DNA of 64,000 bases from Rhizobium sp. NZLR1 (lineage in GTDB: Bacteria; Pseudomonadota; Alphaproteobacteria; Rhizobiales; Rhizobiaceae): assembly GCF_017357385.1 (NCBI RefSeq), contig NZ_CP071634.1:62001-126000 (forward strand). Reading direction: 5' to 3'. Positions 36,556 through 63,113 of the stretch are shown in pieces. How positions within the stretch are numbered: position 1 is the first letter of the stretch; each line of letters starts with the position of its first letter. A program made the translations under genes and the position numbers. A model generated the notes under the pieces. It did no database searches and was not told the origin of the DNA. It saw nothing but the letters and a program-made list of their open reading frames with translations.

Positions 36556-36584
36556 GAATTGCTCGTTTGTGATGGAGGCCCCTC

Positions 36585-36680
36585 ATCCGGCTGCCGCCAC
36601 CTTCTCCCCGAGGGGAGAAGGGGTTTTGAGGCATTGTCCCGTCTCCTCTCGGGAAAGGGTAAGGTGAGGGGACGCTACTT
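36585..36680. repeat. Rhizobial palindromic repeat inside the pca operon
   Basis: The stretch cccctcatccggctgccgcc leads into CTTCTCCCC-GA-GGGGAGAAG (36601-36620), a perfect 9-bp stem, then ggggtttt and a second half (cctctcgggaaaggg). This is a known kind of rhizobial intergenic element, and a partial copy lies at 2692. On the operon's strand it sits between pcaG and pcaB and may process or attenuate the transcript. Confidence 0.65.
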
Positions 36681-36715
36681 GCACTAGGCCCTATCGGCAA
36701 GTTACTTGCCGGCTC

Positions 36716-37327: not shown

Positions 37328-37329
37328 GG

Positions 37330-38079: not shown

Positions 38080-38088
38080 CTCTCCCCC

Positions 38089-39299: not shown

Positions 39300-39371
39300 G
39301 TCACTCTCCTCCTGAATAGTAAAATTGAATGGTTGATCCGGTTAAGTAAAATGATATTTTTCTGCTTTTCA

Positions 39372-39387
39372 ATAACCATGGAGTTAT
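39372..39387 (-). promoter_or_regulatory. Likely PcaQ-binding site in the pcaD-pcaQ region
   Basis: On the minus strand ATAACT-CCAT-GGTTAT closely matches the ATAACC-N4-GGTTAA element recognised by PcaQ in Sinorhizobium. It lies 73-88 bases before the pcaD start and just before the pcaQ start, a position suited to activating pcaD and repressing pcaQ. Confidence 0.75.
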
Positions 39388-39394
39388 GTGAGCG

Positions 39395-40312
39395 ATGATC
39401 GACAGCCGCGTCAAGTTTCGCCATCTGCAGACCTTTGTCGAGGTGGCGCGGCAGAAAAGCGTCATGAAGGCGGCTGAATTGCTGCATGTCAGCCAGCCGG
39501 CGGTCACCAAGACGATCCGCGAGCTGGAACAAGCGCTGGGCGTTGCCGTCTTCGAGCGCGATGGCCGCGGCATCAAGATCACCCGTTATGGCGAAGTCTT
39601 CCTCCGCCATGCCGGGGCGGCGCTGACGGCGCTGCGCCAGGGTCTCGATTCCGTCGCACAGGAGCAGTTTGCCGATGCACCGCCGATCCGGATCGGCGCC
39701 CTGCCGACGGTGTCGTCGCGCATCATGCCGCGGGCGATGGGACTCTTCCTCAAGGAGAGGACCTGGAGCCGGGTGAAGATCGTCACCGGCGAGAACGCGG
39801 TGCTGCTGGAGCAGCTTCGCGTCGGCGATCTCGATGTCGTCGTCGGACGTTTGGCGGGGGCGGAGAAGATGGCGGGCTTTTCCTTCGAACATCTCTACTC
39901 CGAGCAGGTGGTGTTTGCCGTGCGCGCCGGCCATCCGCTGCTGAGCGGCGGGCAATCGCCCTTCTCAGGTTTCGGCGATTACACGGTGCTGATGCCGACG
40001 CGGGGTTCGATTATCCGGCCGGTGGTCGAAAATTTCCTCATCGCCAACGGCGTCTCCAGCCTGCCGAACCAGATCGAGACGGTCTCGGATGCCTTCGGCC
40101 GCGCCTTCCTTCGCTCAAGCGATGCGATCTGGATCATTTCCAACGGCGTGGTGGCCGACGATGTCGCCGACGGACGACTGGCGCTTCTGCCGGTCGATAC
40201 CGGCGAGACCAAGGGGCCGGTCGGGCTGACGATGCGCGCCGATTCCGCGCCGTCCGTGCCGCAATCGATCCTGATGCAGACGATCCGCGAGGCGGCAGGA
40301 GAGGTTTCCTGA
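39395..40312 (+). CDS. pcaQ: LysR-type regulator of the pca operon
   Basis: A 305-residue LysR-type activator divergent from pcaDCHGB. The N-terminal helix-turn-helix is FVEVARQKSVMKAAELLHVS followed by QPAVTKTIRELEQAL; the rest is the ligand-binding domain. In related rhizobia PcaQ responds to beta-carboxymuconolactone. The order and orientation here are the same as in Sinorhizobium and Agrobacterium. Confidence 0.94.
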   Translation: MIDSRVKFRHLQTFVEVARQKSVMKAAELLHVSQPAVTKTIRELEQALGVAVFERDGRGIKITRYGEVFLRHAGAALTALRQGLDSVAQEQFADAPPIRIGALPTVSSRIMPRAMGLFLKERTWSRVKIVTGENAVLLEQLRVGDLDVVVGRLAGAEKMAGFSFEHLYSEQVVFAVRAGHPLLSGGQSPFSGFGDYTVLMPTRGSIIRPVVENFLIANGVSSLPNQIETVSDAFGRAFLRSSDAIWIISNGVVADDVADGRLALLPVDTGETKGPVGLTMRADSAPSVPQSILMQTIREAAGEVS

Positions 40313-45804: not shown

Positions 45805-47478
45805 TCAGTTCCCGAGAATGCCGGGCAGGCGCAGGCCCTTTTCCCTGGCGCAGTCTAGAGCGATGTCATAGCCGGCATCGGCGTGGCGCATGACGCCGGT
45901 CGCCGGGTCGTTCCAGAGCACGCGCTCCAGCCGCCTTGCCGCGTCGTCCGTACCATCGGCGCAGATGACCATGCCGGAATGCTGCGAGAAGCCCATGCCG
46001 ACGCCGCCGCCGTGGTGCAGCGACACCCAGGTGGCGCCCGACGCCGTGTTGAGCAGGGCGTTGAGTAGCGGCCAGTCGGAAACGGCGTCGGAGCCGTCCT
46101 TCATGGCCTCCGTCTCCCGGTTCGGCGAGGCGACGGAACCCGAATCCAGGTGGTCGCGGCCGATGACGATCGGGGCGGAGAGTTCGCCTGATTTCACCAT
46201 CTCGTTGAAGGCGAGGCCAAGCTTGTGGCGGTCGCCGAGGCCTACCCAGCAGATGCGCGCCGGCAGGCCCTGGAAGGCGATGCGCTCCCTGGCCATATCC
46301 AGCCAATTGTGCAGGTGCTTGTTGTCGGGCAGCAATTCTTTCACCTTGGCATCGGTCTTGTAGATATCCTCCGGGTCGCCGGAAAGGGCTGCCCAGCGGA
46401 AGGGGCCGATGCCGCGGCAAAACAGCGGGCGGATATAGGCCGGCACGAAGCCGGGGAAGGCGAAGGCGTTTTCGAGGCCTTCGTCCTTGGCGACCTGGCG
46501 GATATTGTTGCCGTAATCGAGCGTCGGAATACCGGCATTCCAGAAGGCGATCATCGCTTCGACATGCTCGCGCATCGAGGCGCGCGCCGCTTTTTCCACT
46601 GCTTTCGGATCGCTTTCGCGCTTGGCCTTCCACTCGGCCATCGTCCAGCCCTTCGGCAGGTAGCCGTTGATCGGGTCGTGCGCCGAGGTCTGGTCGGTGA
46701 CCATGTCGGGGCGGATGCCGCGGCGGACCATTTCCGGCAGGATTTCGGCGGCATTGCCGAGCAGGCCGACGGATTTGGCTTCACCGGCCTTGGTCCAGCG
46801 GTCGATCATCTCGAGCGCTTCGTCGAGCGTCTCGGCCTTGGCGTCGACATAGCGGGTGCGCAGCCGGAAATCGATCGAGTCTGGATTGCATTCGATGGCG
46901 AGGCAGCAGGCGCCGGCCATCACCGCGGCGAGCGGCTGGGCGCCGCCCATGCCGCCGAGGCCGCCGGTCAGGATCCATTTGCCCTTGAGATTGCCGCCAT
47001 AATGCTGACGGCCGGCCTCGACGAAGGTCTCGTAGGTGCCCTGGACGATGCCCTGCGTGCCGATATAGATCCACGAGCCGGCCGTCATCTGGCCGTACAT
47101 GGCAAGGCCTTTCTTATCCAGCTCATTGAAATGGTCCCAGGTCGCCCAATGCGGCACCAGGTTGGAATTGGCGATCAGCACCCGCGGCGCATCCTTGTGG
47201 GTGCGGAAGACGCCGACCGGCTTGCCGGATTGGACGAGCAGCGTTTCTTCTTCGGTCAGCGTCTTCAGCGTCGCGACGATGCGGTCGAAATCCTCCCAGG
47301 TGCGGGTGGCGCGGCCGATGCCGCCGTAAACGACGAGTTCGTTCGGGTTCTCGGCGACATCAGGATCAAGATTGTTCATCAACATGCGCAGCGGCGCTTC
47401 GGTCATCCAGCTCTTGGCATTGAGATCATTGCCGCGGGGCGCGCGGATTTCGCGGATATTGTGGCGTGGGTTGGTCAT
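45805..47478 (-). CDS. hutU: Urocanate hydratase
   Basis: A 557-residue NAD-dependent enzyme that hydrates urocanate to imidazolonepropionate. Length and sequence match HutU throughout; [20 protein letters not shown] is the NAD-binding glycine-rich stretch, and [15 protein letters not shown] near the C-terminus is also conserved. It is the fourth gene of the operon, between hutG and hutD. Confidence 0.97.
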
Positions 47479-47502: not shown

Positions 47503-48306
47503 TTATCGTTTCAGGTCTGGCGCAATTTGTTCGATGCGCACCAGAATGTTTTTGAGATGGACGCGAAGTCGGTCTGCCCTCGCGGTGTCGTAGGCAAAGG
47601 GCGGTGTCTCGGTCTGCAGATGCGTCGACTGCGCAAGCTCCATCTGGATCGCGTGCACGCCGGTCTCGGGCCGGCCGTAATGGCGGGTCGTCCAGCCACC
47701 CTTGAAGCGACCGTTGAGCACGCTGTCATAACCTTCTGCGGCTTCGACGACGGTCAGCGTCGCTTGCTCGATGGCGCCGTCGCAGGTTTTGCCCATATCG
47801 GTGCCGATATTGAAATCCGGCAGCTTGCCTTCGAACAGGAAGGGAATGTGAGAGCGGATCGAGTGGCAGTCGTAAAGGATCGCCACGCCATGGCTTGCCC
47901 TGACGCGCTCGATCTCGGCGGCAAGTGCCGCGTGATAGGGCGCATGAAAATCCCGCAGCCGCGCCGCGATATCGGCTTCGTCAGGCGCCTGCCCATCCTT
48001 CCAGATCGGCTGGCCGTCGAAGTCCGTTTCCGGGATGAGGCCGGTGGTGTTCTGGCCGGGATAAAGGCTGACGCCCTGCGGATCGCGGTTGGCGTCGATC
48101 ACGTAGCGGTGGAAGGTGGCGCGCACGGTCGTGACATTGTCGAGCAGGCCGTCATAGAGCTGGTGGATGTGCCAGTCGGTATCGGCCAGAATCCTGCCAT
48201 TGTCGTTGAGACGGTCGGCAATCTCCGCCGGCACGTCGGTGCCGGTGTGGGGAAAGGCGAGGATTATGGGGGAGGTGCCCTGACGGATTTCGTATGGTGC
48301 GGTCAT
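47503..48306 (-). CDS. hutG: N-formylglutamate deformylase
   Basis: A 267-residue zinc amidohydrolase that releases formate and glutamate from N-formylglutamate. FPHTGTDVPAEI and LYDCHSIRSHIPFLFEG carry the family's metal and substrate residues. It works with HutF, so the pathway here is the five-enzyme route that frees ammonia then formate. It is the third gene in the operon. Confidence 0.95.
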   Translation of the reverse strand: MTAPYEIRQGTSPIILAFPHTGTDVPAEIADRLNDNGRILADTDWHIHQLYDGLLDNVTTVRATFHRYVIDANRDPQGVSLYPGQNTTGLIPETDFDGQPIWKDGQAPDEADIAARLRDFHAPYHAALAAEIERVRASHGVAILYDCHSIRSHIPFLFEGKLPDFNIGTDMGKTCDGAIEQATLTVVEAAEGYDSVLNGRFKGGWTTRHYGRPETGVHAIQMELAQSTHLQTETPPFAYDTARADRLRVHLKNILVRIEQIAPDLKR

Positions 48307-48307
48307 C

Positions 48308-49843
48308 TCAACCCTCCAAAACCGGCAAGATGCCAGATGAAACCGAGGCGTTCAGTGCGCCGGTCGCCACCAGCTCGGCGGCGGCGGCGAGGTCGTTGGC
48401 CATGTAGCGGTCGGTATCGAGGGTCGGAACCTTGCTGCGGATCGCGGTGATCGCCTTGGCGAGTTCCGGGCTTGTCGACAGCGGCGCGCGCAGTTCGACG
48501 CCTTGGGCGGCGGTCAGCGCCTCGATGCCGATGATGGCGAACAGGTTCTCGGTCATCCCGAGCAGGCGGCGGGCGCCGTGGCAGGCCATCGAGACATGGT
48601 CTTCCTGGTTGGCTGAGGTCGGGGTCGAATCGACCGAGGCCGGATGCGACATCTGCTTGTTCTCCGACATCAGCGCCGCCGAGGTGACCTCGGCGATCAT
48701 CAGGCCGGAATTCAGGCCCGGCTTCTTGGCGAGGAAGGCCGGCAGGCCGTAGGAAAGGGTGGGATCGACCAGCAGGGCGATGCGGCGCTGCGAAATCGCG
48801 CCGATCTCGCAGACGGCAAGCGCGATCTGGTCGGCGGCAAAGGCGACGGGTTCGGCGTGGAAATTGCCGCCGGAGACGACGGAATTGTCCGACAGCACCA
48901 GCGGATTGTCTGTGACCGCATTGGCCTCGATCTCCAGCGTGCGGGCAACCGAGCGCAGCAGGTCAAGGCAGGCGCCATCGACCTGGGGTTGGCAGCGGAT
49001 GCAATAGGGATCCTGCACACGCTCGTCGCCCTCGATATGGCTCTGGCGGATGACGGATTGTTCGAGCAGGGCGCGAAGTGCTGATGCCGTGTCGATCTGG
49101 CCCTTGTGGCCGCGCAAGGTGTGAATATCCGGATGGAAGGGCGCCGAAGAGCCCATGGCGGCGTCGGTCGACATGGCGCCGGTGATCAGCGCCGACTGCG
49201 CGGCGCGGTGGGCGCGGAAGAGACCGGCAAGCGCCAAGGCCGTCGAGGTCTGGGTGCCGTTGATCAGCGCCAGGCCCTCCTTGGCGGCGAGCACTACCGG
49301 TTTGAGACCTGCCCTTTCGAGGGCTTCAGCGCCCGAAAGACGTTCGCCGGCGAAGAAGGCTTCGGCTTCGCCCATCATCACCGCGGCCATATGGGCGAGC
49401 GGTGCAAGATCGCCGGAGGCGCCGACCGAGCCTTTTTCCGGGATCAGCGGAATGACGCCCTTTTCCAGCATGCCCTCGATCAGCCGCACCAGCTCCAGCC
49501 GTACGCCGGAGGCGCCGCGCCCGAGCGAGACCAGTTTCAGCGCCATGATCAACCGGACGATATTTTCAGGCAGCGGCGCGCCGACGCCACAGCAATGCGA
49601 CAGGATGAGATTGCGCTGCAAGGTTGCGACGTCGGCGCTGTCGATCTTGATCGAGGCGAGTTTGCCGAAGCCGGTATTGATGCCGTAGACCGGCGCATTG
49701 CCGGCGGCGATCTCGGCGATCCGGGCGGCGGCCTTAGCGATGCCGGCATCGAAGGCGGGATCGAGCCTTGCCGGCTCGCCGGTCCAATAGATGATTTCCA
49801 AATCCCTGAGGGAGACGGAGCCCGGGTGGAGCGTGATGGTCAT
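48308..49843 (-). CDS. hutH: Histidine ammonia-lyase
   Basis: A 511-residue enzyme that removes ammonia from L-histidine to give urocanate. The MIO cofactor triad Ala142-Ser143-Gly144 lies in [14 protein letters not shown]. The Tyr in YGINTGFG, the [11 protein letters not shown] stretch and the FHAEP segment are all intact. It is the second gene of the operon and overlaps hutI by 4 bases. It is the reference for the degenerate relative at 57527. Confidence 0.97.
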
Positions 49844-51102
49844 CGACCGTTCCTTTCGCCCTTGAAGACGCGTGTGTGAAGCGGGTTGAAGCCGATGCGG
49901 TAGACGAGCTCGGCGAGGCTCTCAATATTCCAGACGGCAAAATCGGCTGATTTGCCGGGCTCGAGCGTTCCGGTCTCGCCGATGAGGCCGAGCGCGCGCG
50001 CACCTTCGCGAGTGGCGCCGGCGATGCATTCTTCGACGGTGAGGCCGAAAAGCGTCGCCGACATGTTCATGGTCAGCAGCATCGAGGTGAGCGGCGAGGT
50101 GCCGGGATTGCAATCGGTGGCAATCGCAATCGGCACGCCGGCCTGGCGTAGCGCCTCCACCGGTGGCTTCTGCTTCTCGTGGATGGCGTAGAAGGCGCCG
50201 GGCAGAAGCACGGCCACGGTGCCGGCAGCGGCCATCGCGGCAACACCTTCTTCGTCGAGATATTCCAGATGATCGGCCGAAAGCGCGCCATATGACGCGG
50301 CGAGCCGGGCGCCGCCGAGATTGGAAAGTTGCTCGGCATGCAGCTTGACCGGCAGGCCAAGCGCCTTCGCCTTGTCGAAGACGCGGGCGATCTCGGCTCT
50401 GGAAAAGGCAATGCCCTCGCAGAAGCCGTCGACCGCATCGGCAAGGCCGAGATTATACATGTCGTCGAGGCCGGGCAGCACGACATCATCGAGATAATCG
50501 CCGTTGCGGCCCTTGTATTCCACCGGCGTCGCATGGGCGCCGAGATAGCTGGTGGCGACGCGGACCGGTCTCAGATGGCCGAGCAGACGGGCGCTCTGCA
50601 ACATCTTCACTTCGCCGGTCCGGTTCAGCCCGTAGCCGGATTTGATCTCGATCGTCGTCACGCCTTCGGCAAGCAGCGTATCGAGCCGCGGCAGCGCCGC
50701 GCTGACGAGTTCCTCGACCGACAGCGCATTGGTCGCTTTGACCGAGGAGACGATGCCACCGCCGGCACGCGCAATTTCCTCATAGGTGGCGCCTTGAAGG
50801 CGCATCTCGAACTCGCGGGCTCGGTTGCCGCCGTGGACGATATGGGTGTGGCAGTCTACGAGGCCGGGCGTGACCCAGCGGCCTTCGAGATCGACGATGT
50901 CGGAGCGTTCGATGGCGGAAGCCGGCAACTCGCTTTCGGCACCGGCAAAGGTGATGCCGCCGTTTTCGGTGAGCACGGCGCCCTTTTCGACGATACCGAG
51001 CCCGTCCTTTTCAGGCGCAAGCGTGGCCAGGCGCGCATTGCGCCACAGCACTGGCCGGACGTCTGGGGATGAGGCTTCCTCTGAAAAATTGTTCCCGGTC
51101 AT
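49840..51102 (-). CDS. hutI: Imidazolonepropionase
   Basis: A 420-residue amidohydrolase that opens the imidazolone ring to N-formimidoylglutamate. [20 protein letters not shown] gives the metal His pair and [14 protein letters not shown] a later metal His. ATG at 51102 (MTGNNFSE) is preferred; the frame is open to 51252, but that part covers the operator and the divergent leader. It is the first gene of hutIHGUD. Confidence 0.96.
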
Positions 51103-51131
51103 CAGCTTTGCGCCTTTCCTTATGTCGAAAC

Positions 51132-51143
51132 ATGTATATACAT
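51132..51143. promoter_or_regulatory. HutC operator between hutI and hutF
   Basis: ATGTATATACAT is a perfect 12-bp palindrome containing TGTATATACA, the element bound by HutC repressors. It lies 30 bases before hutI and 82 bases before hutF, so it can control both directions. Confidence 0.8.
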
Positions 51144-51224
51144 AATAAGCAGGTGACAAGAGAAATTTTGCGCGCTTTTCTGGAAAAGAAAGAGCAGCGG
51201 CGCGGTAAGAGGAGAGGGACGGCC

Positions 51225-52571
51225 ATGACCACACTTCACGCAGGCACGGCACTGACGCCGAAAGGCTGGCAGAAGGACGTGCGGCTGACGCTCGAAGCCG
51301 GTCGCATTGCCCGGGTCGAGATCGGGGTTTCGCCTCAGCCCGGCGATGAACGCCACGCTCTTATCGTTCCGGCCATGGGAAATCTGCACAGCCATGCCTT
51401 CCAGCGGGCGATGGCCGGCCTTGCCGAGGTACGCGGCCCGGCCAATGACAGCTTTTGGAGCTGGCGCACCGTCATGTACAAGTTCGCGCTGGCAATGACC
51501 CCTGAACATGTCGAGGCGGTCGCCGCCAAGCTCTATGCGGAAATGCTGGAGGCGGGCTTTTCCCGGGTCGGCGAATTCCATTATCTCCACCATGACAGGG
51601 ATGGCGGCATTTACGCCAATATCGCCGAGCTTGCCGAACGCATTGGTGCTGCCAGCGAAGAGACCGGCCTCGGCCTGACCTTGCTGCCGGTCTTCTACGC
51701 TCATTCCGGCTTCGGCGGCGCTCAGCCGATCGACGGCCAGCGGCGTTTCATCAATTCGCTGGAAAGCTTCGAAAGGCTGATGGAGGGATGCCGGGCGGTA
51801 ACCAGCCGGCTCGACGGCGCCGAACTCGGGCTGGCGCCGCACAGCCTGCGCGCCGCAACGCCTGAGGAATTGGCGAAGCTTGTGCCGATGGCGGGCGACG
51901 GCCCCATCCATATCCATGTCGCCGAGCAGGTCAAGGAGGTCGAGGATTGCATCGCCTGGTCGGGCGCGCGGCCGGTGGAATGGCTGCTCGATCATGCGCC
52001 TGTGGATGAGCGCTGGTGCTTGATCCACGCGACGCACATGACCGACGACGAAACGCGGCGGATGGCGAAAAGCGGGGCGATTGCCGGCCTCTGCCCGATC
52101 ACCGAAGCCAATCTCGGCGACGGCGCCTTTGCCGCGCCACTCTTCCTCGAAGAGGGCGGGCGTTACGGCATCGGTTCGGATTCCAATGTGCTGATCTCGG
52201 TGCCGGAAGAACTGCGCCAGCTCGAATATTCGCAGCGCCTGGCTCTGCGCGCCCGCAATGTCGTTGCAGCACCCGGCGGATCGACGGCACTTTGCCTGTT
52301 CACCCAGGCGCTTGCCGGCGGCGGTGCCGCTTTGAAGGCGCCCGCAGGTCTTGTTGAAGGCCATCACGCCGATCTCGTTTCGCTCGATACTGCGGCCGTT
52401 TCCTATCTCTCCGGCGACCAGATTCTCGATCACTGGCTGTTTGCCGGCGGTATTTCCGTCGATTGCGTCTGGGCGCGCGGCCGCAAGCAGGTGGAGGGCG
52501 GGCGCCATCTCAAACGTGACGCCATCGACCGGCGTTTCCTGGCCGCGATGGGTGAATTGCTGGCTGCCTGA
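51225..52571 (+). CDS. hutF: Formimidoylglutamate deiminase
   Basis: A 448-residue amidohydrolase that turns N-formimidoylglutamate into N-formylglutamate and ammonia, the substrate of Hut[15 protein letters not shown] holds the metal His pair and [15 protein letters not shown] another. The start at 51225 has ggagaggg just upstream; a longer open frame to 51069 overlaps hutI and the operator. It is divergent from hutI and followed by hutC. Confidence 0.95.
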
Positions 52572-52631
52572 AAAAGCGCTTTTCATGAGCAAGCATTCGA
52601 ATTAGAGCGGGGGATCAATCGGAACGTGGCG

Positions 52632-53354
52632 ATGAATCAAAGCAGGGATCCCACCTTGCATCAGCGCATCCTTGGCGACATCGAGGGCCGTATCGTCTCG
52701 GGCGAATGGCCGCCGGGGCATCGCATTCCCTTCGAAGTGGATCTCGCCACCCAATATGACGTCTCGCGGATGACGGTGAACAAGGTGCTGACTCAGCTCG
52801 CCAAGGCCGGTCTCATCGAGCGCCGCAAGAAATCCGGCAGCTTCGTCACCCAGCCGCAGGCGCAATCGGCCGTCCTCGAAATCCACGACATCAAGGCCGA
52901 GGTGCAGTCGCTGAACCTGCCCTATTCCTATGCGGTTTCGAAGAAGACCAGCCGCAAGGCGAAGGTGGAAGACAGCCGCCGGCTGGAACTGCCGGTCGCC
53001 TCTTCGGTCGTCGAGGTGGTCTGCATCCACAATGCCGGCGCGCGGCCCTTCTGCCTGGAGGAGCGGTTGATCAGTCTGGCGACCGTACCGGAAGCCGCCG
53101 ATGCCGATTTCCTGATGATGGCGCCGGGGCCCTGGTTGCTCAACCAGGTGCCGTGGAGCACGGCCGAACACCGGATCCACGCCGTCTCGGCCAATGCCGA
53201 AGTGGCCGCGGTCCTCGACATCGCGCGCAATACCGCCTGTCTCGTCGTCGAACGCCGCACCTGGAGCGGCGCCGGCCCGGTGACGCATGTGCGCTTCACC
53301 TATCCGGGCGATCGTCACGCGCTGGTGGCGCGTTTCACCCCGGCATCACAGTAA
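52632..53354 (+). CDS. hutC: Histidine utilisation repressor (GntR/HutC)
   Basis: A 240-residue GntR regulator of the HutC branch. The winged helix is QRILGDIEGRIVSGEWPPGH then YDVSRMTVNKVLTQL; the C-terminal UTRA domain contains RRTWSGAGPVTHVRFTYPGD. It represses hut genes until urocanate builds up. It follows hutF by 60 bases. The GTG at 52626 is an alternative start. Confidence 0.93.
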   Translation: MNQSRDPTLHQRILGDIEGRIVSGEWPPGHRIPFEVDLATQYDVSRMTVNKVLTQLAKAGLIERRKKSGSFVTQPQAQSAVLEIHDIKAEVQSLNLPYSYAVSKKTSRKAKVEDSRRLELPVASSVVEVVCIHNAGARPFCLEERLISLATVPEAADADFLMMAPGPWLLNQVPWSTAEHRIHAVSANAEVAAVLDIARNTACLVVERRTWSGAGPVTHVRFTYPGDRHALVARFTPASQ

Positions 53355-53387: not shown

Positions 53388-54143
53388 TCATTCCTCGAAC
53401 ATCTTGCCGCTGCGCGCTTCGAGCCGGTAGCGATAGCCCGGATAGACAAGGCGGGCGGTCGACACCACCTGCTTTGCCGACCATGTGCGTCGACGGATCG
53501 TCAAGCACGGTTCGGTCTTCAGGATGGTCAGGAGCTTGCATTCCCAGGCCTGCGGCATCGCCGCCTCGACGACGTGCTCGGAGCCGCTAAGCGGGGCTGC
53601 GGCGGTCAGATAGGCATTCGGCGTCAGCGTCGTGAAATCCTGGCCGAGATATTCGGGAGCAGCCTCCGGATGGACGAAACGGTCCTCGATCTGCACCGGA
53701 ACGCCGTTTTCGCTGTGGACGATCAGCGAGTGGAAGACCGCCGCGCCGATCGCAAGCTCCAATGCGTCGGCGATCTCCGGAGAGGCTGTTTCCTGGGCGA
53801 GAACGATGACCGAAGCCTCGTGGACATGGCCGCGTTCGGCGATTTCCTCGGCGATGTTGCGCACCTCGAACAGCGCCGAATAGCCCTTGCGCTCGGCGAC
53901 GAAGGAACCGACCCCCTGGATGCGGACGAGTTCGCCTTCATTGGCAAGTTCGCGCAGCGCCCGGTTGGCGGTCATCTTGCTGACGCCGAGCTCGACCACC
54001 AGCTCGTTTTCCGATGGCACCCGGTATTTCGGCGGCCATTCGCCGCTGTGGATGCGGTCGAGGATCACCTGCTTGACGCCGGCATAAAGCGGCGTGCTAT
54101 CATTTTCCGCCAACTCGCGCTTCATCTCGCCGGAACGCTTCAT
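53388..54143 (-). CDS. Second HutC-type GntR repressor
   Basis: A 251-residue paralogue of HutC. The winged helix is VKQVILDRIHSGEWPPKYRV then LGVSKMTANRALREL, followed by a UTRA domain ending RRTWSAKQVVSTARLVYPGY. It is convergent with hutC and divergent from the histidine-type ABC operon, which it probably controls. ATG at 54143 or 54125 could be the start. Confidence 0.9.
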   Translation of the reverse strand: MKRSGEMKRELAENDSTPLYAGVKQVILDRIHSGEWPPKYRVPSENELVVELGVSKMTANRALRELANEGELVRIQGVGSFVAERKGYSALFEVRNIAEEIAERGHVHEASVIVLAQETASPEIADALELAIGAAVFHSLIVHSENGVPVQIEDRFVHPEAAPEYLGQDFTTLTPNAYLTAAAPLSGSEHVVEAAMPQAWECKLLTILKTEPCLTIRRRTWSAKQVVSTARLVYPGYRYRLEARSGKMFEE

Positions 54144-54337: not shown

Positions 54338-55180
54338 ATGAAATTCAGCGCAATCCTATTTTGCGGCGTGGCGGCTTTTTCCGCCTTCGCTGCGCCCGCC
54401 TTTTCCAAGGACTGGACGAAGGCGACCATCACGCTTGAAGGCGCCTATGCGCCGTGGAACCTCACCAATGCCGACGGCACGCTCGGCGGCTTCGAGCCGG
54501 AGCTTGCCAAAGTGCTCTGCGAACGCGCCAAGATCGAATGCACGCTGGTCGCTTCCGACTGGGACGGTATGATCCCGGCGCTCAATGCCGGTAAGTTCGA
54601 CGTCATCATGGATGCGCTGTCGATCACCGAAGAGCGCAAGCAGGTCATCGACTTCACCATTCCCTATGCTGCCACACCTGCCGCATTCGCCACCGCCAAG
54701 GACAGCCCGCTGGCCAAGGCTGCCGGCACCGGCGCCACGATCAAGATGACGCCCGGCCAGACTGGCGTGAAGGAGATCGATGCGCTGAAGGCCGCTTTCA
54801 AGGGCAAGACGATCGGCATTCAGGCGGCGACCGTCTACGCCAAGTTCGTCTATGACAATTTCGGCGACATTGCCGAGATCCGCGAATACAAGACCGGCGC
54901 CGACCGTGATCTCGACCTGCAGAACGGCCGCATCGACCTCGGCTTTGACGACGCCGTCTATTTCGCCAACGCCTTCCAGAGCGCCAATGGCGCACTCGAC
55001 TTCACCGGTCCGGAGATCGTCGGTTCGATCTGGGGCGAGGGCGAAGGCCTCGGCGTCCGCAAGGCTGACACCGACCTACGCGACAAGTTCAGCGAGGCGA
55101 TCAAGTCCGCGCTCGCCGACGGCACCGTCAAGAACCTCTCGATGAAGTGGTTCAAGGTCGACGTCAGCCCGCAGCAATAA
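54338..55180 (+). CDS. ABC transporter substrate-binding protein, histidine/basic amino acid type
   Basis: A 280-residue periplasmic binding protein of the HisJ class, with a signal peptide ending near AFS-KDW. Arg100 (SITEERKQVIDF) should bind the carboxylate and Asp205 (GRIDLGFDDAVYF) the amino group of an amino acid. With HutC-type control and a HAL-like gene in the operon, histidine or a histidine derivative is the likely ligand. Start at 54338 has agaggaga nearby; the longer frame to 54218 covers the operator. Confidence 0.88.
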   Translation: MKFSAILFCGVAAFSAFAAPAFSKDWTKATITLEGAYAPWNLTNADGTLGGFEPELAKVLCERAKIECTLVASDWDGMIPALNAGKFDVIMDALSITEERKQVIDFTIPYAATPAAFATAKDSPLAKAAGTGATIKMTPGQTGVKEIDALKAAFKGKTIGIQAATVYAKFVYDNFGDIAEIREYKTGADRDLDLQNGRIDLGFDDAVYFANAFQSANGALDFTGPEIVGSIWGEGEGLGVRKADTDLRDKFSEAIKSALADGTVKNLSMKWFKVDVSPQQ

Positions 55181-55285: not shown

Positions 55286-56011
55286 ATGGCAAGCTTGGAA
55301 CTGCTCGGCTTCGGCTCGACCGGATGGGGCGCGTTGCTCATTGCCGCTACCTTGATGACGCTGGCTGTCACGGCGACGGCGCTGGCAATCGGCGCGGTAC
55401 TGGGCGCAATCGTCGCGGCGGCGAAACTCTCCAGCAATCTTGCCCTCGTCACCCTCGGCAACATCTATACGACCGTGTTTCGCGGCGTGCCCGAGCTGCT
55501 GATCATCTATCTCATCTATTTCGGCGGCTCCTCGGCCGTCACCTCGATCGGCAAGGCGATGGGTTACGAGGGTTTCCTCGGCCTGCCCTCCTTCATCGCT
55601 GGCGCGCTTGCCGTCGGCATCATCTCCGGCTCCTATCAGGCGGAGGTGTTTCGCGGCGCTTTCCACGCCATTTCCAAAGGCGAACTTGAGGCGGCCTCGG
55701 CAATCGGCATGCATCGCGGCATGCGGCTGCGCCGTATCATCATGCCGCAGGTGTTTCGCCTCGCCATTCCCGGCCTCGGCAATGTCTGGCAGCTCAGCCT
55801 CAAGGATTCCGCACTGATTTCCGTCACCGGCCTTGCCGAACTGATGCGCACCAGCCAGGTCGCGGCGGGCTCGACCCGGCAATATTTCCTGTTCTTCATC
55901 GCCGGCGGCTGCCTCTATCTGATCCTGACCAGCCTTTCCGACCGGATCTTCAACGGTGCGGAACGCCGCGCCAACCGCAGCATGCCGGCAGCCGCCATGG
56001 GCCAGACGTAA
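55286..56011 (+). CDS. ABC transporter permease (HisQ-like)
   Basis: A 241-residue inner-membrane permease with about five helices. VFRGVPELLIIYLIYFGG and YQAEVFRGAFHAISKGELEA (the ATPase-contacting loop) are HisQ/ArtQ-class motifs. It pairs with the next permease, which starts 10 bases after it. Confidence 0.9.
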   Translation: MASLELLGFGSTGWGALLIAATLMTLAVTATALAIGAVLGAIVAAAKLSSNLALVTLGNIYTTVFRGVPELLIIYLIYFGGSSAVTSIGKAMGYEGFLGLPSFIAGALAVGIISGSYQAEVFRGAFHAISKGELEAASAIGMHRGMRLRRIIMPQVFRLAIPGLGNVWQLSLKDSALISVTGLAELMRTSQVAAGSTRQYFLFFIAGGCLYLILTSLSDRIFNGAERRANRSMPAAAMGQT

Positions 56012-56021
56012 GGAGGCGATG

Positions 56022-56726
56022 ATGGATTTCACCTTTCTAGCTTCGACCATGGTCACCCTGCTCAAGGCGGTGCCGACGACGCTGATCCTGTTTTCGCTGT
56101 CGATCTTCTTTGGCGGCCTGCTGGCGCTCGTCATCGTCTCGATGCGGGTCAGCGGCAACCCGCTGCTTTCGGGGTTCGCCAAGGGTTATATCTTCATCTT
56201 CCGCGGCTCGCCGCTGCTGATCCAGATGTTCCTGGTGTTTTACGGCCTCGGCCAGTTCGGCGTCATCCGCTATTCCTTCCTGTGGCCGTTCCTGCGCGAG
56301 CCGATGGTCTGCGCCGTGCTGTCGCTGGCGCTCTGCACCGCCGGCTACACGGCGGAGATTTTTCGCGGCGGCATCCGCGCCGTTTCGCCGAAGGAGATCG
56401 AGGCGGCCCGCTCGATCGGCATGTCCGGCCCCCTGCTGGTGCGCCGCATCCTGGCGCCGATTGCCTTCCGCCATGCGCTGCCGGCCTATTCCACCGAGAT
56501 CGTGCTGATGATGAAGTCGACGGCGCTCGCAAGCCTCGTCACCGTCTGGGAGGTCACCGGTGTGGCCCAGCGGCTGATTTCGCAGACCTACCGGACGATG
56601 GAGGTCTTTCTCTGCGCGGCGATCATCTATCTCGTTTTGAACTTCATCATCCTGCAGGGCATGGCCCTGCTCGAATATTCGCTGTCCCGACACCGCCGCG
56701 CGGCCCCGCAGGCGCTGAAAGCGTAA
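56022..56726 (+). CDS. ABC transporter permease (HisM-like)
   Basis: A 234-residue permease, partner of the preceding one. FIFRGSPLLIQMFLVFYGLG and AEIFRGGIRAVSPKEIEAAR are the class motifs. Start at 56022 has a perfect AGGAGG (56011-56016); the adjoining ATG at 56019 is also possible. Confidence 0.9.
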   Translation: MDFTFLASTMVTLLKAVPTTLILFSLSIFFGGLLALVIVSMRVSGNPLLSGFAKGYIFIFRGSPLLIQMFLVFYGLGQFGVIRYSFLWPFLREPMVCAVLSLALCTAGYTAEIFRGGIRAVSPKEIEAARSIGMSGPLLVRRILAPIAFRHALPAYSTEIVLMMKSTALASLVTVWEVTGVAQRLISQTYRTMEVFLCAAIIYLVLNFIILQGMALLEYSLSRHRRAAPQALKA

Positions 56727-56753: not shown

Positions 56754-57530
56754 ATGCCAGGCGTCACCCGACTTTCGGTCCGCAATATCCGCAAGAGCTT
56801 CGGCACGCACGAGGTGCTGCGCGGCATTTCCCTCAATGCTGAGGACGGCGATGTGATTTCGCTGCTCGGCGCCTCAGGCTCCGGCAAATCGACCTTTCTG
56901 CGCTGCATCAACATGCTCGAAACCGCAAGCGATGGCGAGATCTGGGTCGATGGCGAGCACATCGAGATGGTGCACAAAAACGGGCGCAGCAAACCGGCGA
57001 GCCAGAAGCAGGTGGACCACATCCGCTCCGAACTCGGTATGGTGTTCCAGTCCTTCAATCTCTGGTCCCATATGACGATCCTGCAGAACGTCATTGAAGG
57101 GCCGATCCATGTGCTCAAACGACCACGTGCCGACTGCATCGCCGAGGCCGAAGCGCTGCTCGAAAAGGTCGGCATCGCAGACAAGCGCCATGCCTATCCC
57201 GCCCATCTCTCCGGCGGCCAGCAGCAGCGCGCCGCGATCGCCCGCGCGCTGGCGATGAAGCCGAAGGTGATGCTCTTCGACGAGCCGACCTCGGCCCTTG
57301 ATCCGGAACTCGTCGGCGAGGTGCTGCGCGTCATGCGCGCGCTTGCCGAGGAAGGCATGACCATGCTCGTCGTCACCCATGAGATGAGCTTTGCCCGCAA
57401 TGTTTCCAACCGCGTCGTCTTCATGCGCGAAGGGCTGATCGAAAGCAGCGGCAAGCCGGACGACATGTTCACCGGCGGCGCCACACCCGCCTTCCGCCAG
57501 TTCATCGGCCATTTCGGAAGCGGTCAATGA
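56754..57530 (+). CDS. ABC transporter ATP-binding protein (HisP-like)
   Basis: A 258-residue ATPase. Walker A is [20 protein letters not shown], the signature [16 protein letters not shown], Walker [15 protein letters not shown], and the switch His VVTHEMSFA. It has the insertion [12 protein letters not shown] typical of HisP/ArtP-type ATPases. The stop overlaps the HAL-like gene by 4 bases, so the two are translated together. Confidence 0.92.
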
Positions 57531-59020
57531 CCAAAACCATCGAGACCCTGCTGACCTGGTGCGATGTTGCCCGCGTCGGGGCAGGGGAGGCGCTGGCACT
57601 ATCGCCCGCCGCCTGGGCGCGCGTCGAGCAGGCAAGCCGCATCGTCGCCGCAATCGTCGAGACCGGCATGCGTGCCTACGGCGTCAACACCGGCGTCGGG
57701 GCGCTGGCGGATACGGTGGTCGATCGGGTCTCGCAGAGCCTTTTGTCGCGCAGCATCGTGCTCAGCCATGCGTGCGGCGTGGGGCCGTTGCTGGGCGGTC
57801 GCGAAGTGCGGGCCATCATCGCCGCTCAGATTGCCAATTTCGCCCACGGCCATTCCGGCGTACGGCGTGATGTCGTCGAGCACCTCACAGCCATGCTGGA
57901 GCATGACTGCATTCCCGACGTGCCGTCCAAGGGCTCCGCCGGTTATCTCGTCCACAATGCCCATATTGCGCTTGTTCTGATCGGCGAAGGCAGCGCCACG
58001 CTTGCCGGCCGGCGCATGAGCGGCCGCGAGGCGCTGGCGGCGATCGGCCTTCAGCCGCTGGTGCTCGGTGCCAAGGAGGGCTTGAGCCTCGTCAACGGCA
58101 CGGCCTGCGCCACGGGGCTGACCGCCACAGCACTTTCTCGCGCCGAACGGCTGCTCGACTGGGCCGATGCGATCGCGGCGCTGACGCTCGAAGCGGCAGG
58201 CTGCCAGATCGCCGCTTTCGACGAGGCGGTGCTGGCGCTGCGCCCGTCGGCGGGGATCGAAAAGGTGGGCGCGACGCTGCGGGCCCGGCTTTTCGGCAGC
58301 GGCCTTGTCGCCGCCGCCTTCGGCGGGCGCACCCAGGATGCGCTCAGCCTTCGTTCGGTGCCGCATGCGCATGGCGCCGCCCGTGACGTTTTCGACAATT
58401 CCGCCCGTATCGTCGATCAGGAACTTGCCTCGGTAACGGACAATCCCGCCGTCTCCGGCACGCCCGAACATCCGATCGTCTCCTCCGAGGCGCATGCGGT
58501 CGCCGCGGCGCTCGGGCAGGCGGCCGATAGCCTCGCCATTGCGCTGGCGCAGATCGGCGCGATCAGCGAACGGCGCATGGACCGGCTGGTCAATCCGCTG
58601 GTGAGCGGCCTGCCGCCGTTTCTGGCGAGTGACGCCGGCAGCCATTCCGGCTTCATGATCGCGCAATATACCGCAGCCGCACTCAGCAACGACAACCGCC
58701 GGCTTGCCGCCCCCGCGGCCATGGACGGCGGCCTCACCTCCGGCCTGCAGGAGGATTTCCTCGCCCATCCGACAGCTGCCGCCGGCAAGCTGCTCACGGT
58801 CATCGACAATGCCGAATATATCCTGGCGATCGAGCTGATGGCCGCTGCCCAGGCGCATGATTTCCTGACTGCGACGGCGCCGCGGGCGGCGGGCACGGAT
58901 CTGGTTTACCAAGTCGTGCGCCAGCGTATCTCCCATTATGGCGACGAACGGCCGCTCAACGGCGATATCGAGGCCGTGCGCAACCTGATCCGCGAGACGG
59001 TGCCGCCGCCGATCGGCTGA
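57527..59020 (+). CDS. HAL/PAL-family protein lacking the MIO triad
   Basis: A 497-residue protein homologous to histidine ammonia-lyase over its whole length ([29 protein letters not shown]). The MIO-forming Ala-Ser-Gly is missing: where HutH reads [14 protein letters not shown], this reads [11 protein letters not shown] (residues 136-146), which is three residues shorter. The Tyr of QDPYCIR is also changed (QDALSLR, Leu273), and FHAEP has no match. The frame is intact and the gene is coupled to an amino acid ABC importer, so it is not a pseudogene. It may have new chemistry or a binding role. Automatic annotation as HutH would be misleading. Confidence 0.85.
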
Positions 59021-60551: not shown

Positions 60552-63113
60552 TTAGGTGCGTGGCTTCAGATTTTCCGGGTCATAGATCGGCTTGTACCCG
60601 ACGCCGACAACCTCCACCGGATAAGTCTCGGCAAAATACTCGACACTCAGCTTGCGTCCGACCTGGCAATGCGACCAGGGCAAATAGGCCAAAGCGATGT
60701 TCTTTCCGACCGTTGGGCCGTAGGCGATCGAGGTCGTGTAGGACCGGCGGCCGAGCTCATCGACCAGGACCTCTCCGGTCGCGGGATCGACGACCGGCAG
60801 GTTGCCGAGGGGATAACGCTTCACGCCCGATTTGTCGGTATTCTCGGTCATCACAAGGGTGCAGAGCATGGCCGGCTGGTGTTCGCGCGCCTTGTATTCC
60901 AAATGTTTTGCCTTGCCGCGGAAATCGGCTTCCTTGACCTTCGGACGGGCGAGATCGGCTTCGATCAGGTTGTACTGGGTCAGGAGATCGGCGTTCTGCA
61001 GTCGCAGGCTCTTTTCCATGCGGCGCGAGTTGGCATAGGTCTCTACGCCGAAGGCCATCACACCGGTCGAGCGCAGCGCATCCCAGACGGCGAGGCCGTC
61101 TTCGTATTTCATGTGCAGTTCCCAGCCCTGCTCGCCGACATAGGAGATGCGGAAGGCGGTGACAGGCTTACCGGCGATTTCGATCGGCTTGATCGCTGCA
61201 AAGGCGAAGTTTTCCTGATCGAGCCCGGCCGGATCGGCCACGACCTTCTTCAGCGTGTCGCGCGCGTTCGGACCCCAGATGCCGATCGTCACGAATTTTT
61301 CCGAGACGTCTGTGATGGTCACGTCAAGGCCACGGTCTTCGGCGACACGCTTCATATAGTGCAGGTCGCGCGGGCCGGCATCGGCGCCGTTGACGAGACG
61401 GCAGCGGTCGGCCATGCGGAAGACGGTGAAGTCAGCGCGCACCATGCCTTCGTCGTCGAGGAAGTGGGTGTAAACGCCCTTGCCGATGTTTGCATCGCCG
61501 CCGACCTTGGCGGCGCACAGCCATTCCATCAGTTCGACATGGTCGGGTCCCTCGATATCGACCATGTGGAAGTGGCTGAGGTTGACGATGCCGCAATCCT
61601 CGCTCATCGCCAGATGCTCGGCATTCGACACGCGCCAGAAATGGCGGCTGTCCCATTCGTTCTCGCGAACCGGGACGCGGTCGGCGTATTTCTCCAGAAG
61701 GTGCTCGTTGGCGGCGTAGCCGTGGGCACGCTCCCAGCCGCCAAGTTCCATGAAGTAGCCACCAAGCTCCTTTTCGCGCTCGTGGAAGGGCGAGCGCTTG
61801 GCGTTGCGGGCGGAGGCATAGGGTTCGCGGGTGTGAACGGCCGGGAAATAGATCTTCTGGGCGGCTTCGAAGCACCGGCCCTCGATGAACTCTTCGGTCA
61901 ACTGATGCGGATAGAAGCGGGCGTAGTCGATGCTGTTGTGATCGATTTCAGTACGGCCATCGGTCATCCAGTCGGCGATGAGCTTGCCATAGCCCGGGCC
62001 GTCCTTGACCCAGATGGCAACGCAATACCAGAGACCCCTGACCTTCTGGCTCTCGCCGCAGGATGCGCCGCCGCCGGCGGAAACCTGCAGCAGGCCGTTG
62101 AAGGAGTGACCTTCGTTATAGCCGAGTTCGCCGAGGATCGGCGTCAGTTCCATAGCGCGCTCGAGCGGCTCGATGATCTGTTCCATCTCGAGATCGCGCT
62201 GCGACGGCGAAAGGCGCGCTTCGTGTTTTTCGAGAATATCGCGCGGATGGCACATGCGCGGATTGGTGGCTTCGTAATAGCCCCACTCGATCTGACCGCC
62301 CTCGGTCGTCGCCGGGTCGCCGGTATCGCGCATATAGGCGGAGTTGCCCTGGTCGCGCAGCAACGGGAAGCCGATTTCCTTGCCGGTGCCTTCAAACTCG
62401 TTATAGGGACCGAAGAAGGTGAGCGGGTGGTCGACCGGCATGACCGGCAGGTCTTCGCCGACCATCTCCGCGATCAGGCGCCCCCAGAGGCCGGCGCAGA
62501 CGATGACGTGGTCGGCCATGATCGTGCCGCGATGGGTGACGACGCCCTTGATGCGGCCGCCTTCGACGATCAGCGATTTCGCCGGCGTGTTGCCGAACAC
62601 CTGCAGCTTGCCGGCCTTTTCGGCGGCATCGACGAGCTTGCCGGCAACGGTCTGCGAGCGCGGAATGACGAGGCCGGCATCCGGATCGTAAAGACCGCCC
62701 ATCACCTGATCTTCCTCGATCAGCGGGAACTTCTCCTTGATCTCGGAAGGGCTGACATAATGGGCGCGGGTGCCGAAAGCGCGTGCCGAGGATAGCTTGC
62801 GCTTGATTTCTTCCATCCAGGCATGGTCGCCGGTGCGCGCCACTTCGAGGCCGCCGATGCGGGCGTAATGGCCCATCTTCTCGTAGAAATCGATCGAATA
62901 TTGCGTGGTCCAGACCGACAGATAGTCGTGGCTCGTGGTGTAACAGAAGTCCGAGGCATGGGCTGTCGAGCCGATATCGGTCGGTATGCCCGACTTGTCG
63001 ATGCCGACGATATCGTCCCATCCGCGCTCGACGAGATGATGCGCGATCGAGGCGCCGACGATACCGCCGAGGCCGATGATGACGACCTTTGCCTTTTCCG
63101 GAAATGCTGCCAC
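60552..63113 (-). CDS. Dimethylglycine/sarcosine dehydrogenase-like FAD protein with GcvT domain
   Basis: An 853-residue protein. The N-terminus has the FAD motif VIIGLGGIVGASIAHHLVER and a D-amino-acid-oxidase-like domain to about residue 400. The C-terminal half is a GcvT-type folate-binding aminomethyl transferase with DFTVFRMADRCRLVNG and ISYVGEQGWELHMKYEDGLA. Such proteins demethylate dimethylglycine or sarcosine and pass the one-carbon unit to tetrahydrofolate, as in glycine betaine breakdown. It starts with GTG, with aagga eight bases upstream. No other betaine genes are nearby. Confidence 0.88.
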   Translation of the reverse strand: MAAFPEKAKVVIIGLGGIVGASIAHHLVERGWDDIVGIDKSGIPTDIGSTAHASDFCYTTSHDYLSVWTTQYSIDFYEKMGHYARIGGLEVARTGDHAWMEEIKRKLSSARAFGTRAHYVSPSEIKEKFPLIEEDQVMGGLYDPDAGLVIPRSQTVAGKLVDAAEKAGKLQVFGNTPAKSLIVEGGRIKGVVTHRGTIMADHVIVCAGLWGRLIAEMVGEDLPVMPVDHPLTFFGPYNEFEGTGKEIGFPLLRDQGNSAYMRDTGDPATTEGGQIEWGYYEATNPRMCHPRDILEKHEARLSPSQRDLEMEQIIEPLERAMELTPILGELGYNEGHSFNGLLQVSAGGGASCGESQKVRGLWYCVAIWVKDGPGYGKLIADWMTDGRTEIDHNSIDYARFYPHQLTEEFIEGRCFEAAQKIYFPAVHTREPYASARNAKRSPFHEREKELGGYFMELGGWERAHGYAANEHLLEKYADRVPVRENEWDSRHFWRVSNAEHLAMSEDCGIVNLSHFHMVDIEGPDHVELMEWLCAAKVGGDANIGKGVYTHFLDDEGMVRADFTVFRMADRCRLVNGADAGPRDLHYMKRVAEDRGLDVTITDVSEKFVTIGIWGPNARDTLKKVVADPAGLDQENFAFAAIKPIEIAGKPVTAFRISYVGEQGWELHMKYEDGLAVWDALRSTGVMAFGVETYANSRRMEKSLRLQNADLLTQYNLIEADLARPKVKEADFRGKAKHLEYKAREHQPAMLCTLVMTENTDKSGVKRYPLGNLPVVDPATGEVLVDELGRRSYTTSIAYGPTVGKNIALAYLPWSHCQVGRKLSVEYFAETYPVEVVGVGYKPIYDPENLKPRT

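What the first reader, a model, noticed from the sequence alone, without database searches (positions are those of the whole stretch)
57527..59020. HAL-fold enzyme with no MIO triad, coupled to a histidine-type importer
Histidine and phenylalanine ammonia-lyases need the Ala-Ser-Gly triad to form the MIO cofactor. Here the segment is [11 protein letters not shown]: the triad is deleted and the stretch is shortened by three residues, and Tyr of QDPYCIR is Leu. The frame is intact, uses normal codons and overlaps the importer's ATPase gene. A true HutH with an intact triad lies 8 kb away as contrast. The protein may do a different reaction or bind histidine, urocanate or a related compound.
Basis: partly seen in the sequence, partly recalled or inferred. 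Interest (0 to 1): 0.78.

Follow-up and report, generated by a model that had tools for sequence, protein, structure and literature searches.

The report
Cofactor-free lyase for histidine betaine
A soil bacterium carries a relative of the histidine-degrading enzyme that has lost the built-in chemical group this enzyme family normally needs, and the evidence suggests it instead splits trimethylamine off a soil compound, histidine betaine (hercynine), feeding the rest into the normal histidine pathway.

Summary
ORF 57527-59020 (497 aa) is a HutH-family protein with the MIO triad cleanly deleted. It is no local error: 240 of 240 listed relatives, 80 of 80 named loci and 39 of 39 further loci lack the triad, and the gene is under purifying selection (dN/dS 0.09-0.24). 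42 of 42 sampled members (HAL2) form one clade (SH-aLRT 100), found in Alpha- and Gammaproteobacteria.

Best reading: HAL2 removes trimethylamine from hercynine without MIO, making urocanate for the adjacent Hut enzymes; quaternary nitrogen is already a good leaving group. HAL2 keeps HutH's base, imidazole and carboxylate residues but loses ASG, Tyr280 and Phe329. It usually follows an importer, in some members a betaine ABC or BCCT carrier. The same genome has a separate ergothioneine operon with its own MIO-less lyase, whereas the window's urocanase is the ordinary type. The genome also has trimethylamine-oxidation genes.

MIO-less trimethylamine lyases (ergothionase) are known; this looks like a separate lineage with a probably different substrate. 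No activity was tested and no structure obtained. The importer's binding protein is opine-like rather than histidine-type.

The parts
57527..59020 (+). HAL2: MIO-less HutH-family protein, proposed hercynine trimethylamine-lyase
   Evidence: signature GSxGY[LI]xH and Leu at the Tyr280 site conserved
57932..57967 (+). Codons of [12 protein letters not shown] (residues 136-147): the shortened loop, triad ASG absent
56754..57530 (+). ABC ATPase of the polar amino acid type; 4-nt overlap with HAL2
   Evidence: HisP-like 336 bits, below cut-off 466
56019..56726 (+). ABC permease B (ORF listed from 55956; start placed by reading)
   Evidence: PF00528, ArtM/HisM-like, below cut-off
55286..56011 (+). 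ABC permease A
   Evidence: PF00528, HisQ/ArtQ-like, below cut-off
54338..55180 (+). Periplasmic binding protein, opine-like (ORF listed from 54218; start placed by reading)
   Evidence: PF00497; nearest solved: octopine- and nopaline-binding proteins; Asp-Ala in the MDALSIT motif in 96 of 96
53388..54143 (-). HutC-type GntR repressor divergent from the importer-HAL2 operon
   Evidence: TIGR02018 295.4 bits > 220
52626..53354 (+). HutC, second HutC-type repressor, after hutF
   Evidence: TIGR02018 294.8 > 220
51069..52571 (+). hutF, formimidoylglutamate deiminase
   Evidence: TIGR02022 612 > 413
49840..51252 (-). hutI, imidazolonepropionase
   Evidence: TIGR01224 429 > 298
48308..49843 (-). 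hutH, true histidase with ASG and QDPY; in-window control
47503..48306 (-). hutG, N-formylglutamate deformylase
   Evidence: TIGR02017 402 > 279
45805..47478 (-). hutU, ordinary urocanate hydratase, below the thiourocanate hydratase cut-offs
   Evidence: TIGR01228 978 > 375; NF058530 684 < 930; NF058531 701 < 880

Best explanation
HAL2 is a lyase that works without the MIO cofactor. It removes trimethylamine from hercynine (N-alpha-trimethylhistidine), giving urocanate, which the neighbouring HutU, HutI, HutF and HutG turn into glutamate. The upstream ABC importer brings the betaine in, and a HutC-type repressor controls the operon. MIO is needed in HutH to turn a free amine into a leaving group. 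A quaternary trimethylammonium is already one, so the triad, Tyr280 and Phe329 around it could be lost, while the acid/base, imidazole- and carboxylate-binding residues stay. Shown here: the anatomy, conservation, phylogeny, residue pattern and operon associations. Inferred: the substrate, the reaction, the import of the substrate, the regulation and the role of the retained residues (residue numbers and roles are recalled from HutH literature).
For: (1) 58 of 58 HAL2 rows keep HutH Y53, H83, Q277, R283 and E414 (N195 57 of 58). All lack ASG, all have Leu at the Y280 site and none has Phe at the F329 site (column 324, against 4 HutH rows). (2) Importers next to HAL2 elsewhere are betaine carriers: OpuA/ChoXWV-type ABC directly upstream in 12 of 44 diverse loci and BCCT in 2. 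In the window's own subgroup, L038, L133 and L139 (73-75% identity) have an OsmF-like betaine ABC. The fewest changes of importer type on the HAL2 tree are 4. (3) HAL2 often sits among ordinary hut genes; in L053 and L054 the order is hutF, betaine ABC, HAL2, hutI, hutH, hutG, hutU (names by gene cluster, not scanned one by one). All 23 HAL2 genomes have a further HutH-type hit; 104 of 128 without HAL2 do (p=0.013). (4) The own genome has a separate ergothioneine operon: a MIO-less ergothionase-type lyase, then ErtD, ErtE, thiohydantoin desulfurase and thiourocanate hydratase, these four over NCBIfam cut-offs. The window's urocanase is the ordinary type. So ergothioneine already has a lyase, and HAL2's product should be urocanate. 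(5) Trimethylamine: one HAL2 locus (L039 = L140) has TMAO demethylase 3.5 kb and trimethylamine monooxygenase 6.6 kb from HAL2. The own genome has both on HAL2's contig. The monooxygenase is in 10 of 23 HAL2+ and 13 of 128 HAL2- Rhizobiaceae genomes (p=3e-4). (6) An N-methyl-amino-acid oxidase-like gene directly follows HAL2 in 44 of 80 named and 6 of 44 diverse loci. (7) A HAL2 relative on pAt15955 (53%) is in an operon with S-methyl-thiourocanate hydratase, ErtD and ErtE, where a trimethylamine-lyase is the step left for it (inference). (8) Hercynine is listed among soil quaternary ammonium compounds (PMC8550315, passages).
Against: No activity or structure. HAL2 lacks ergothionase Lys384 (Tyr in 57 of 58), so its mechanism cannot be copied from ergothionase. 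The window's importer is of amino-acid/opine type. The monooxygenase link is weak outside Rhizobiaceae: order set 8/21 vs 49/276 (p=0.029), but 5/17 vs 49/276 (p=0.18) without the HAL2 genomes shared with the first set; among the 15 HAL2 genomes from other classes in the phylum set none has it. These tests ignore kinship. Trimethylamine genes were found beside HAL2 in one locus only. 5 of 44 diverse loci have none of the genes looked for within 400 bases upstream. The pAt15955 case suggests the clade may handle more than one betaine. Some HAL2 proteins pass the curated HutH cut-offs (3 of 13 NF006871, 1 of 13 TIGR01225), so by profile score alone they look like histidases.
Confidence: 0.68

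Rival explanations
1. HAL2 is a trimethylamine-lyase for another imidazole betaine (ergothioneine, S-methyl-ergothioneine, ergothioneine sulfonate or a ring-methylated hercynine), or for several of them.
For: Same clade as the pAt15955 lyase, which lies in an operon with S-methyl-thiourocanate hydratase.
Against: The window carries ordinary hut genes, as do L053 and L054 by gene cluster; the own genome has a full, separate ergothioneine operon with its own lyase; HAL2 lacks Lys384.
Confidence: 0.14
2. HAL2 is a MIO-free histidase, or acts on another histidine derivative with a different leaving group (for example an opine-type N-substituted histidine).
For: G712 has hutU, hutF, hutI, hutG and HAL2, but none of its three PF00221 proteins passes a HutH cut-off. 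The binding protein is closest to octopine/nopaline-binding proteins. Some HAL2 proteins pass HutH cut-offs.
Against: 19 of 20 checked HAL2 genomes have a canonical HutH, in L181 and L183 as the next gene. Without MIO an amine is a poor leaving group (recalled). Betaine carriers would be unexplained.
Confidence: 0.09
3. HAL2 is catalytically dead and serves as a binding or regulatory subunit, for example of HutH or the importer.
For: Triad and Tyr280 lost; gene overlaps the ATPase gene.
Against: 58 of 58 keep E414 and Y53; HAL2 comes with four importer types or none; purifying selection.
Confidence: 0.05
4. The deletion is an assembly error or gene decay.
For: None.
Against: Conserved in every relative checked; dN/dS 0.09-0.24.
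Confidence: 0.005

Closest known systems
Histidine ammonia-lyase HutH (TIGR01225; window 48308-49843)
   Same: Family PF00221, about 36-42% identity; Y53, H83, Q277, R283 and E414 kept, N195 in 57 of 58
   Different: No MIO triad, Tyr280 to Leu, Phe329 lost; the window's protein is below the HutH cut-offs, though 3 of 13 scanned relatives pass one
Ergothionase, ergothioneine trimethylamine-lyase (PDB 6s7j, Treponema denticola)
   Same: MIO-less member of PF00221 with Leu at the Tyr280 site; PMC13405746 (passages) states that it lacks MIO and makes trimethylamine
   Different: Loop one residue shorter than HutH, not three; has Lys384 and a different N195 region; separate branch, HAL2+ergothionase as one clade rejected (p=0.0016), not rejected if L060 is added (p=0.43)
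HAL2-type lyase of the pAt15955 operon with Ert genes (P0122)
   Same: Same clade, same deletion, 53% identity, 4-nt overlap with the importer ATPase gene
   Different: Betaine ABC, S-methyl-thiourocanate hydratase, ErtD and ErtE instead of ordinary hut genes
Pseudomonas-type hutH1/hutH2 tandem (naming recalled)
   Different: Betaine ABC instead of an amino-acid-type importer; the link to published hutH1 work is recalled only

Membership tests
HutH histidase | Ala-Ser-Gly triad forming MIO | tested here: not met
   Absent; absence conserved
HutH histidase | Tyr280 (QDPY) and Phe329 (GGNF) | tested here: not met
   Leu in 58 of 58; no Phe in 58
HutH histidase | Score over curated cut-offs TIGR01225/NF006871 | tested here: not met
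   Window protein 452.7 < 539.15 and 449.8 < 524. Weak test: 3 of 13 triad-less relatives scanned pass NF006871, 1 of them also TIGR01225
HutH histidase | Catalytic and imidazole/carboxylate residues Y53, H83, Q277, R283, E414 (roles recalled) | tested here: met
   58 of 58
HutH histidase | Release of ammonia from histidine | not testable with these tools
   Needs assay
Ergothionase | MIO-less PF00221 member | tested here: met
   ASGD is absent in 119 of 120 listed relatives of 6s7j
Ergothionase | Lys384 (TIQK) | tested here: not met
   Tyr in 57 of 58 and Leu in 1
Ergothionase | Same clade as ergothionases | tested here: inconclusive
   AU p=0.0016 against; p=0.43 if L060 is included; quick tree with long branches
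Ergothionase | Thiourocanate hydratase partner gene | tested here: not met
   Window urocanase is ordinary; thiourocanate hydratase sits with another lyase on contig C1
Ergothionase / trimethylamine-lyases | Release of trimethylamine from an imidazole betaine | not testable with these tools
   Needs assay
HAL2 clade (defined here) | GSxGY[LI]xH loop, Leu at the Tyr280 site, one clade | tested here: met

The most novel reading that the evidence does not exclude
There is a widespread, unrecognised branch of histidine catabolism in Proteobacteria in which hercynine, a betaine found in soil, is imported and split by a MIO-free descendant of HutH into trimethylamine and urocanate. The cofactor of this enzyme family was lost in a lineage separate from ergothionase, as an adaptation to a leaving group that needs no activation. 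Databases name these enzymes histidine ammonia-lyase.
Probability: 0.6. Interest if true: 0.72.

Novelty: new variant of a known kind. Interest (0 to 1): 0.62.

Why it matters
If true, a large group of proteins named histidine ammonia-lyase does not act on histidine, and bacteria have a route from a soil quaternary ammonium compound to glutamate and trimethylamine. It would also show cofactor loss following the chemistry of the leaving group, apparently in two lineages of one fold family, with all three variants (true HutH, ergothionase type, HAL2) present in one genome as natural controls. The prediction can be tested with one purified protein and hercynine, which is in use as an analytical standard (PMC13405746, passages).

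Tried and rejected
Considered and rejected: local error or decay (relatives, dN/dS); ergothioneine as main substrate in this strain (separate operon in the own genome, ordinary urocanase here); plain histidase (triad lost, HutH beside it); membership of the ergothionase group (Lys384, tree, partner gene).

Led nowhere: structure prediction (queue full at all 14 tries), so no fold search was run and the active-site argument rests on alignment. Ten paper searches: none of the listings showed a report of a hercynine lyase or of a MIO-less HutH other than ergothionase; only passages of four listed papers were read, the rest were seen as listings. The key ergothionase papers are not held, nor two hut papers tried by identifier. 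EgtD was not found in the own genome.

Results against the reading: no trimethylamine monooxygenase in the 15 HAL2 genomes of other classes; order-set link not significant without shared genomes; 5 of 44 diverse loci without any looked-for gene upstream; importer in the window not betaine-type; some HAL2 proteins pass HutH cut-offs.

Rows dropped before counts: the tree left out L003, L219 and L160 (long branches); the second tree kept HAL2 rows and three HutH only; one search compared 58 HAL2 rows with only 4 HutH rows, and its printed label F329 stands at column 322 while the Phe column is 324, read from the column list below it. tblastn pieces under 250 query residues were dropped; L003 gave no match. 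Gene names come from clustering of ORFs; L055 was missed there and found. The named set (80) and the diverse set (44) share some genomes (for example L039 and L140). Only the best 80 of 577 confirmed stretches were returned, and only the best 120 proteins.

Full report
OBSERVATION. The ORF 57527-59020 (+) is intact, 497 aa, and starts at the stop of the ATPase gene (ATGA, 57527-57530). Pfam puts it whole into PF00221 (465 bits). It fails the curated HutH cut-offs that the neighbour at 48308-49843 passes. These cut-offs are a weak divider: of 13 triad-less proteins scanned, 3 pass NF006871 and 1 of them also TIGR01225. Aligned with the neighbour, [14 protein letters not shown] reads [11 protein letters not shown] in effect: exactly ASG is gone and D is Y; QDPYCIR reads QDALSLR.

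NOT AN ACCIDENT. In 151 Rhizobiaceae genomes, 23 have a relative at 57-100% identity, and the other listed matches are at most 42%. All 23 lack ASG; the eight other fetched loci that matched have it. In genome contigs 577 stretches were confirmed and the best 80 returned; 80 of 80 have GSxGYL. Order-wide 21 of 297 and phylum-wide 23 of 398 genomes have a relative over the set threshold; 39 of 39 loci from these two searches show GSxGY[LI]xH. All 240 proteins listed by two protein searches do too. dN/dS is 0.09-0.24 in ten comparisons, nine of them distinct. I call the group HAL2. Named members are Rhizobium, Sinorhizobium, Neorhizobium, Agrobacterium, Shinella, Phyllobacterium and Pseudomonas, Halomonas, Vreelandella, Pantoea, Dickeya, Paracoccus and others.

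PHYLOGENY. In a 70-row tree, 42 HAL2 rows form one clade (SH-aLRT 100) next to true HutH (93), and the ergothionase group branches apart. Without three long rows, forcing HAL2 and ergothionases together is rejected (p-AU 0.0016), but not if L060 is added (p 0.43). So a separate loss of MIO is favoured, not proven.

ACTIVE SITE. Across 58 HAL2 rows, HutH residues Y53, H83, Q277, R283 and E414 are invariant and N195 is in 57; the Y280 site is Leu in 58 and the F329 site (column 324) is never Phe. The residues recalled to hold the imidazole and carboxylate and to act as base are kept; those recalled to lie around MIO and the amine are gone. Relatives of 6s7j also lack MIO (ASGD absent in 119 of 120) and have Leu or Ile at the Y280 site in the 84 of 120 rows where the motif was found, but 6s7j has Lys384 where HAL2 has Tyr. 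I could not obtain a model: the structure queue was full at all 14 attempts.

GENOMIC SETTING. In the window: hutU, hutG, hutH, hutI (-), hutF and hutC (+), a second HutC-type repressor (-), then binding protein, two permeases, ATPase and HAL2 (+). Directly upstream of HAL2 the named set (80) has this ATPase in 74, hutC in 4 and a HutC-like gene in 2; the diverse set (44) has amino-acid-type ATPase in 22, OpuA/ChoXWV-type betaine ATPase in 12, BCCT in 2, HutC-like or hutF in 3 and none of the looked-for genes in 5. The two HutC-like cases, L133 and L139, and their relative L038 lie in the window's own subgroup (73-75% identity) and have an OsmF-like betaine ABC before the regulator. The fewest changes of importer type on the tree are four. 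The family assignments rest on Pfam OpuAC and BCCT over cut-off, and on NCBIfam proV, choXWV, OsmF and betaine_BCCT matches of which most are below the exact cut-off; single representatives were scanned and others assigned by similarity. In L053 and L054 HAL2 stands between a betaine ABC and hutI-hutH-hutG-hutU; in L181 and L183 HAL2 directly precedes hutH. 19 of 20 checked HAL2 genomes have a canonical HutH. The exception G712 has hutU, BCCT, HAL2, hutI, hutG and an ergothionase-type gene on one strand in a row; none of its three PF00221 proteins passes a HutH cut-off.

WHY HERCYNINE. An imidazole betaine fits the importers and explains why MIO is dispensable. Two MIO-less lyases coexist in this genome. 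One (C1:366792-368132) has 6s7j, ergothionase, as best solved match and lies in a row with ErtD, ErtE, thiohydantoin desulfurase and thiourocanate hydratase, all four over cut-off. The other, HAL2, lies with an ordinary urocanase (978 bits; below both thiourocanate hydratase cut-offs). By exclusion the second should yield urocanate, and the betaine that yields urocanate is hercynine. Hercynine is named among soil quaternary ammonium compounds in PMC8550315 (passages read).

TRIMETHYLAMINE. L039 (same locus as L140) has TMAO demethylase 3.5 kb and trimethylamine monooxygenase 6.6 kb from HAL2, both over cut-off; no other locus held at that point had them. The own genome has both, on HAL2's contig about 250-260 kb away. 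Co-occurrence with the monooxygenase: Rhizobiaceae 10 of 23 vs 13 of 128, p=3.2e-4; order 8 of 21 vs 49 of 276, p=0.029, and 5 of 17, p=0.18, without HAL2 genomes shared with the first set; phylum 6 of 23 vs 23 of 375, p=0.0037, with 0 of 15 HAL2 genomes from other classes. Elsewhere trimethylamine may simply be released. An N-methyl-amino-acid oxidase-like gene (NF008425 over cut-off in the two copies scanned) directly follows HAL2 in 44 of 80 named and 6 of 44 diverse loci, which also fits N-alpha-methylated substrates.

IMPORTER. The binding protein is nearer to octopine/nopaline-binding proteins than to the histidine-binding protein. All 96 homologues found in the loci have Asp-Ala where I recall Ser69-Ser70 of HisJ; opine-binding proteins also have Ala at the second site (alignment). 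This suits an N-substituted amino acid but does not single out hercynine.

KNOWN OR NEW. MIO-less, trimethylamine-releasing relatives of HutH are known: PMC13405746 (passages) says ergothionase lacks MIO and lists Treponema, Burkholderia and Agrobacterium radiobacter among others. The pAt15955 HAL2 homologue stands in an operon with S-methyl-thiourocanate hydratase, ErtD and ErtE, which recalls the ergothioneine sulfonate pathway paper listed there for A. radiobacter (title seen in a reference list; paper not held), so part of the clade may already have been assayed. Ten paper searches listed no report of a hercynine lyase in this open-access library. Verdict: new variant of a known kind.

Noticed in passing
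L056 2788-10181 (-), G000:C1: Ergothioneine breakdown operon in the same genome: MIO-less ergothionase-type lyase, ErtD, ErtE, thiohydantoin desulfurase, thiourocanate hydratase.
   Followed up: yes
L199 5510-14428 (-), G712: hutU, BCCT carrier, HAL2, hutI, hutG and an ergothionase-type MIO-less gene in one row, in a genome with hutF but no PF00221 protein over a HutH cut-off.
   Followed up: partly
L058 459-11476 (pAt15955): HAL2 relative in a row with ErtE, S-methyl-thiourocanate hydratase, a molybdopterin S/N-oxide reductase, ErtD and a betaine ABC; the reductase's role is unexplained.
   Followed up: partly
L060 7884-9389 (R. leguminosarum CB782): A further MIO-less HutH relative (GSIGAADLAP, QDPLSYR, Lys at the 384 site) beside annotated glycine/betaine ABC genes, ornithine cyclodeaminase and a histidine utilization repressor; substrate unknown.
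   Followed up: partly
L037 10319-11464, and 44 of the 80 named loci: N-methyltryptophan/sarcosine-oxidase-like gene directly after HAL2; may demethylate N-methylhistidines.
   Followed up: partly
L169; also L170 and L184: Triad-less proteins that pass curated histidine ammonia-lyase cut-offs (L169 both, L170 and L184 NF006871 only), so automatic naming will call them HutH.
   Followed up: partly
window 60552-63113 (-): 853-aa protein with a GcvT-type C-terminal part and weak match to TMAO demethylase (105 bits, cut-off 1100), 1.5 kb after HAL2; looks like a dimethylglycine/sarcosine dehydrogenase by reading.
   Followed up: no
window 52626-53354 and 53388-54143: Two different HutC equivalogs side by side.
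   Followed up: no
window 27772-29667 and 35509-40312: QuiC-like protein with a 4HPPD-like part (both below cut-off), and pcaB and pcaQ over cut-off.
   Followed up: no
L185, L189, L191, L197, L198; L160 (same gene as in L197): HAL2 copies without importer or hut gene within 400 bases upstream; L160 is also a long branch with QPPLSLR in place of QDxLSLR.
   Followed up: no
PMC12772324, passages: The paper labels PA5093 as hutG; from memory PA5093 is a HutH-like protein of P. aeruginosa, so the label may need checking. Not verified here.
   Followed up: no
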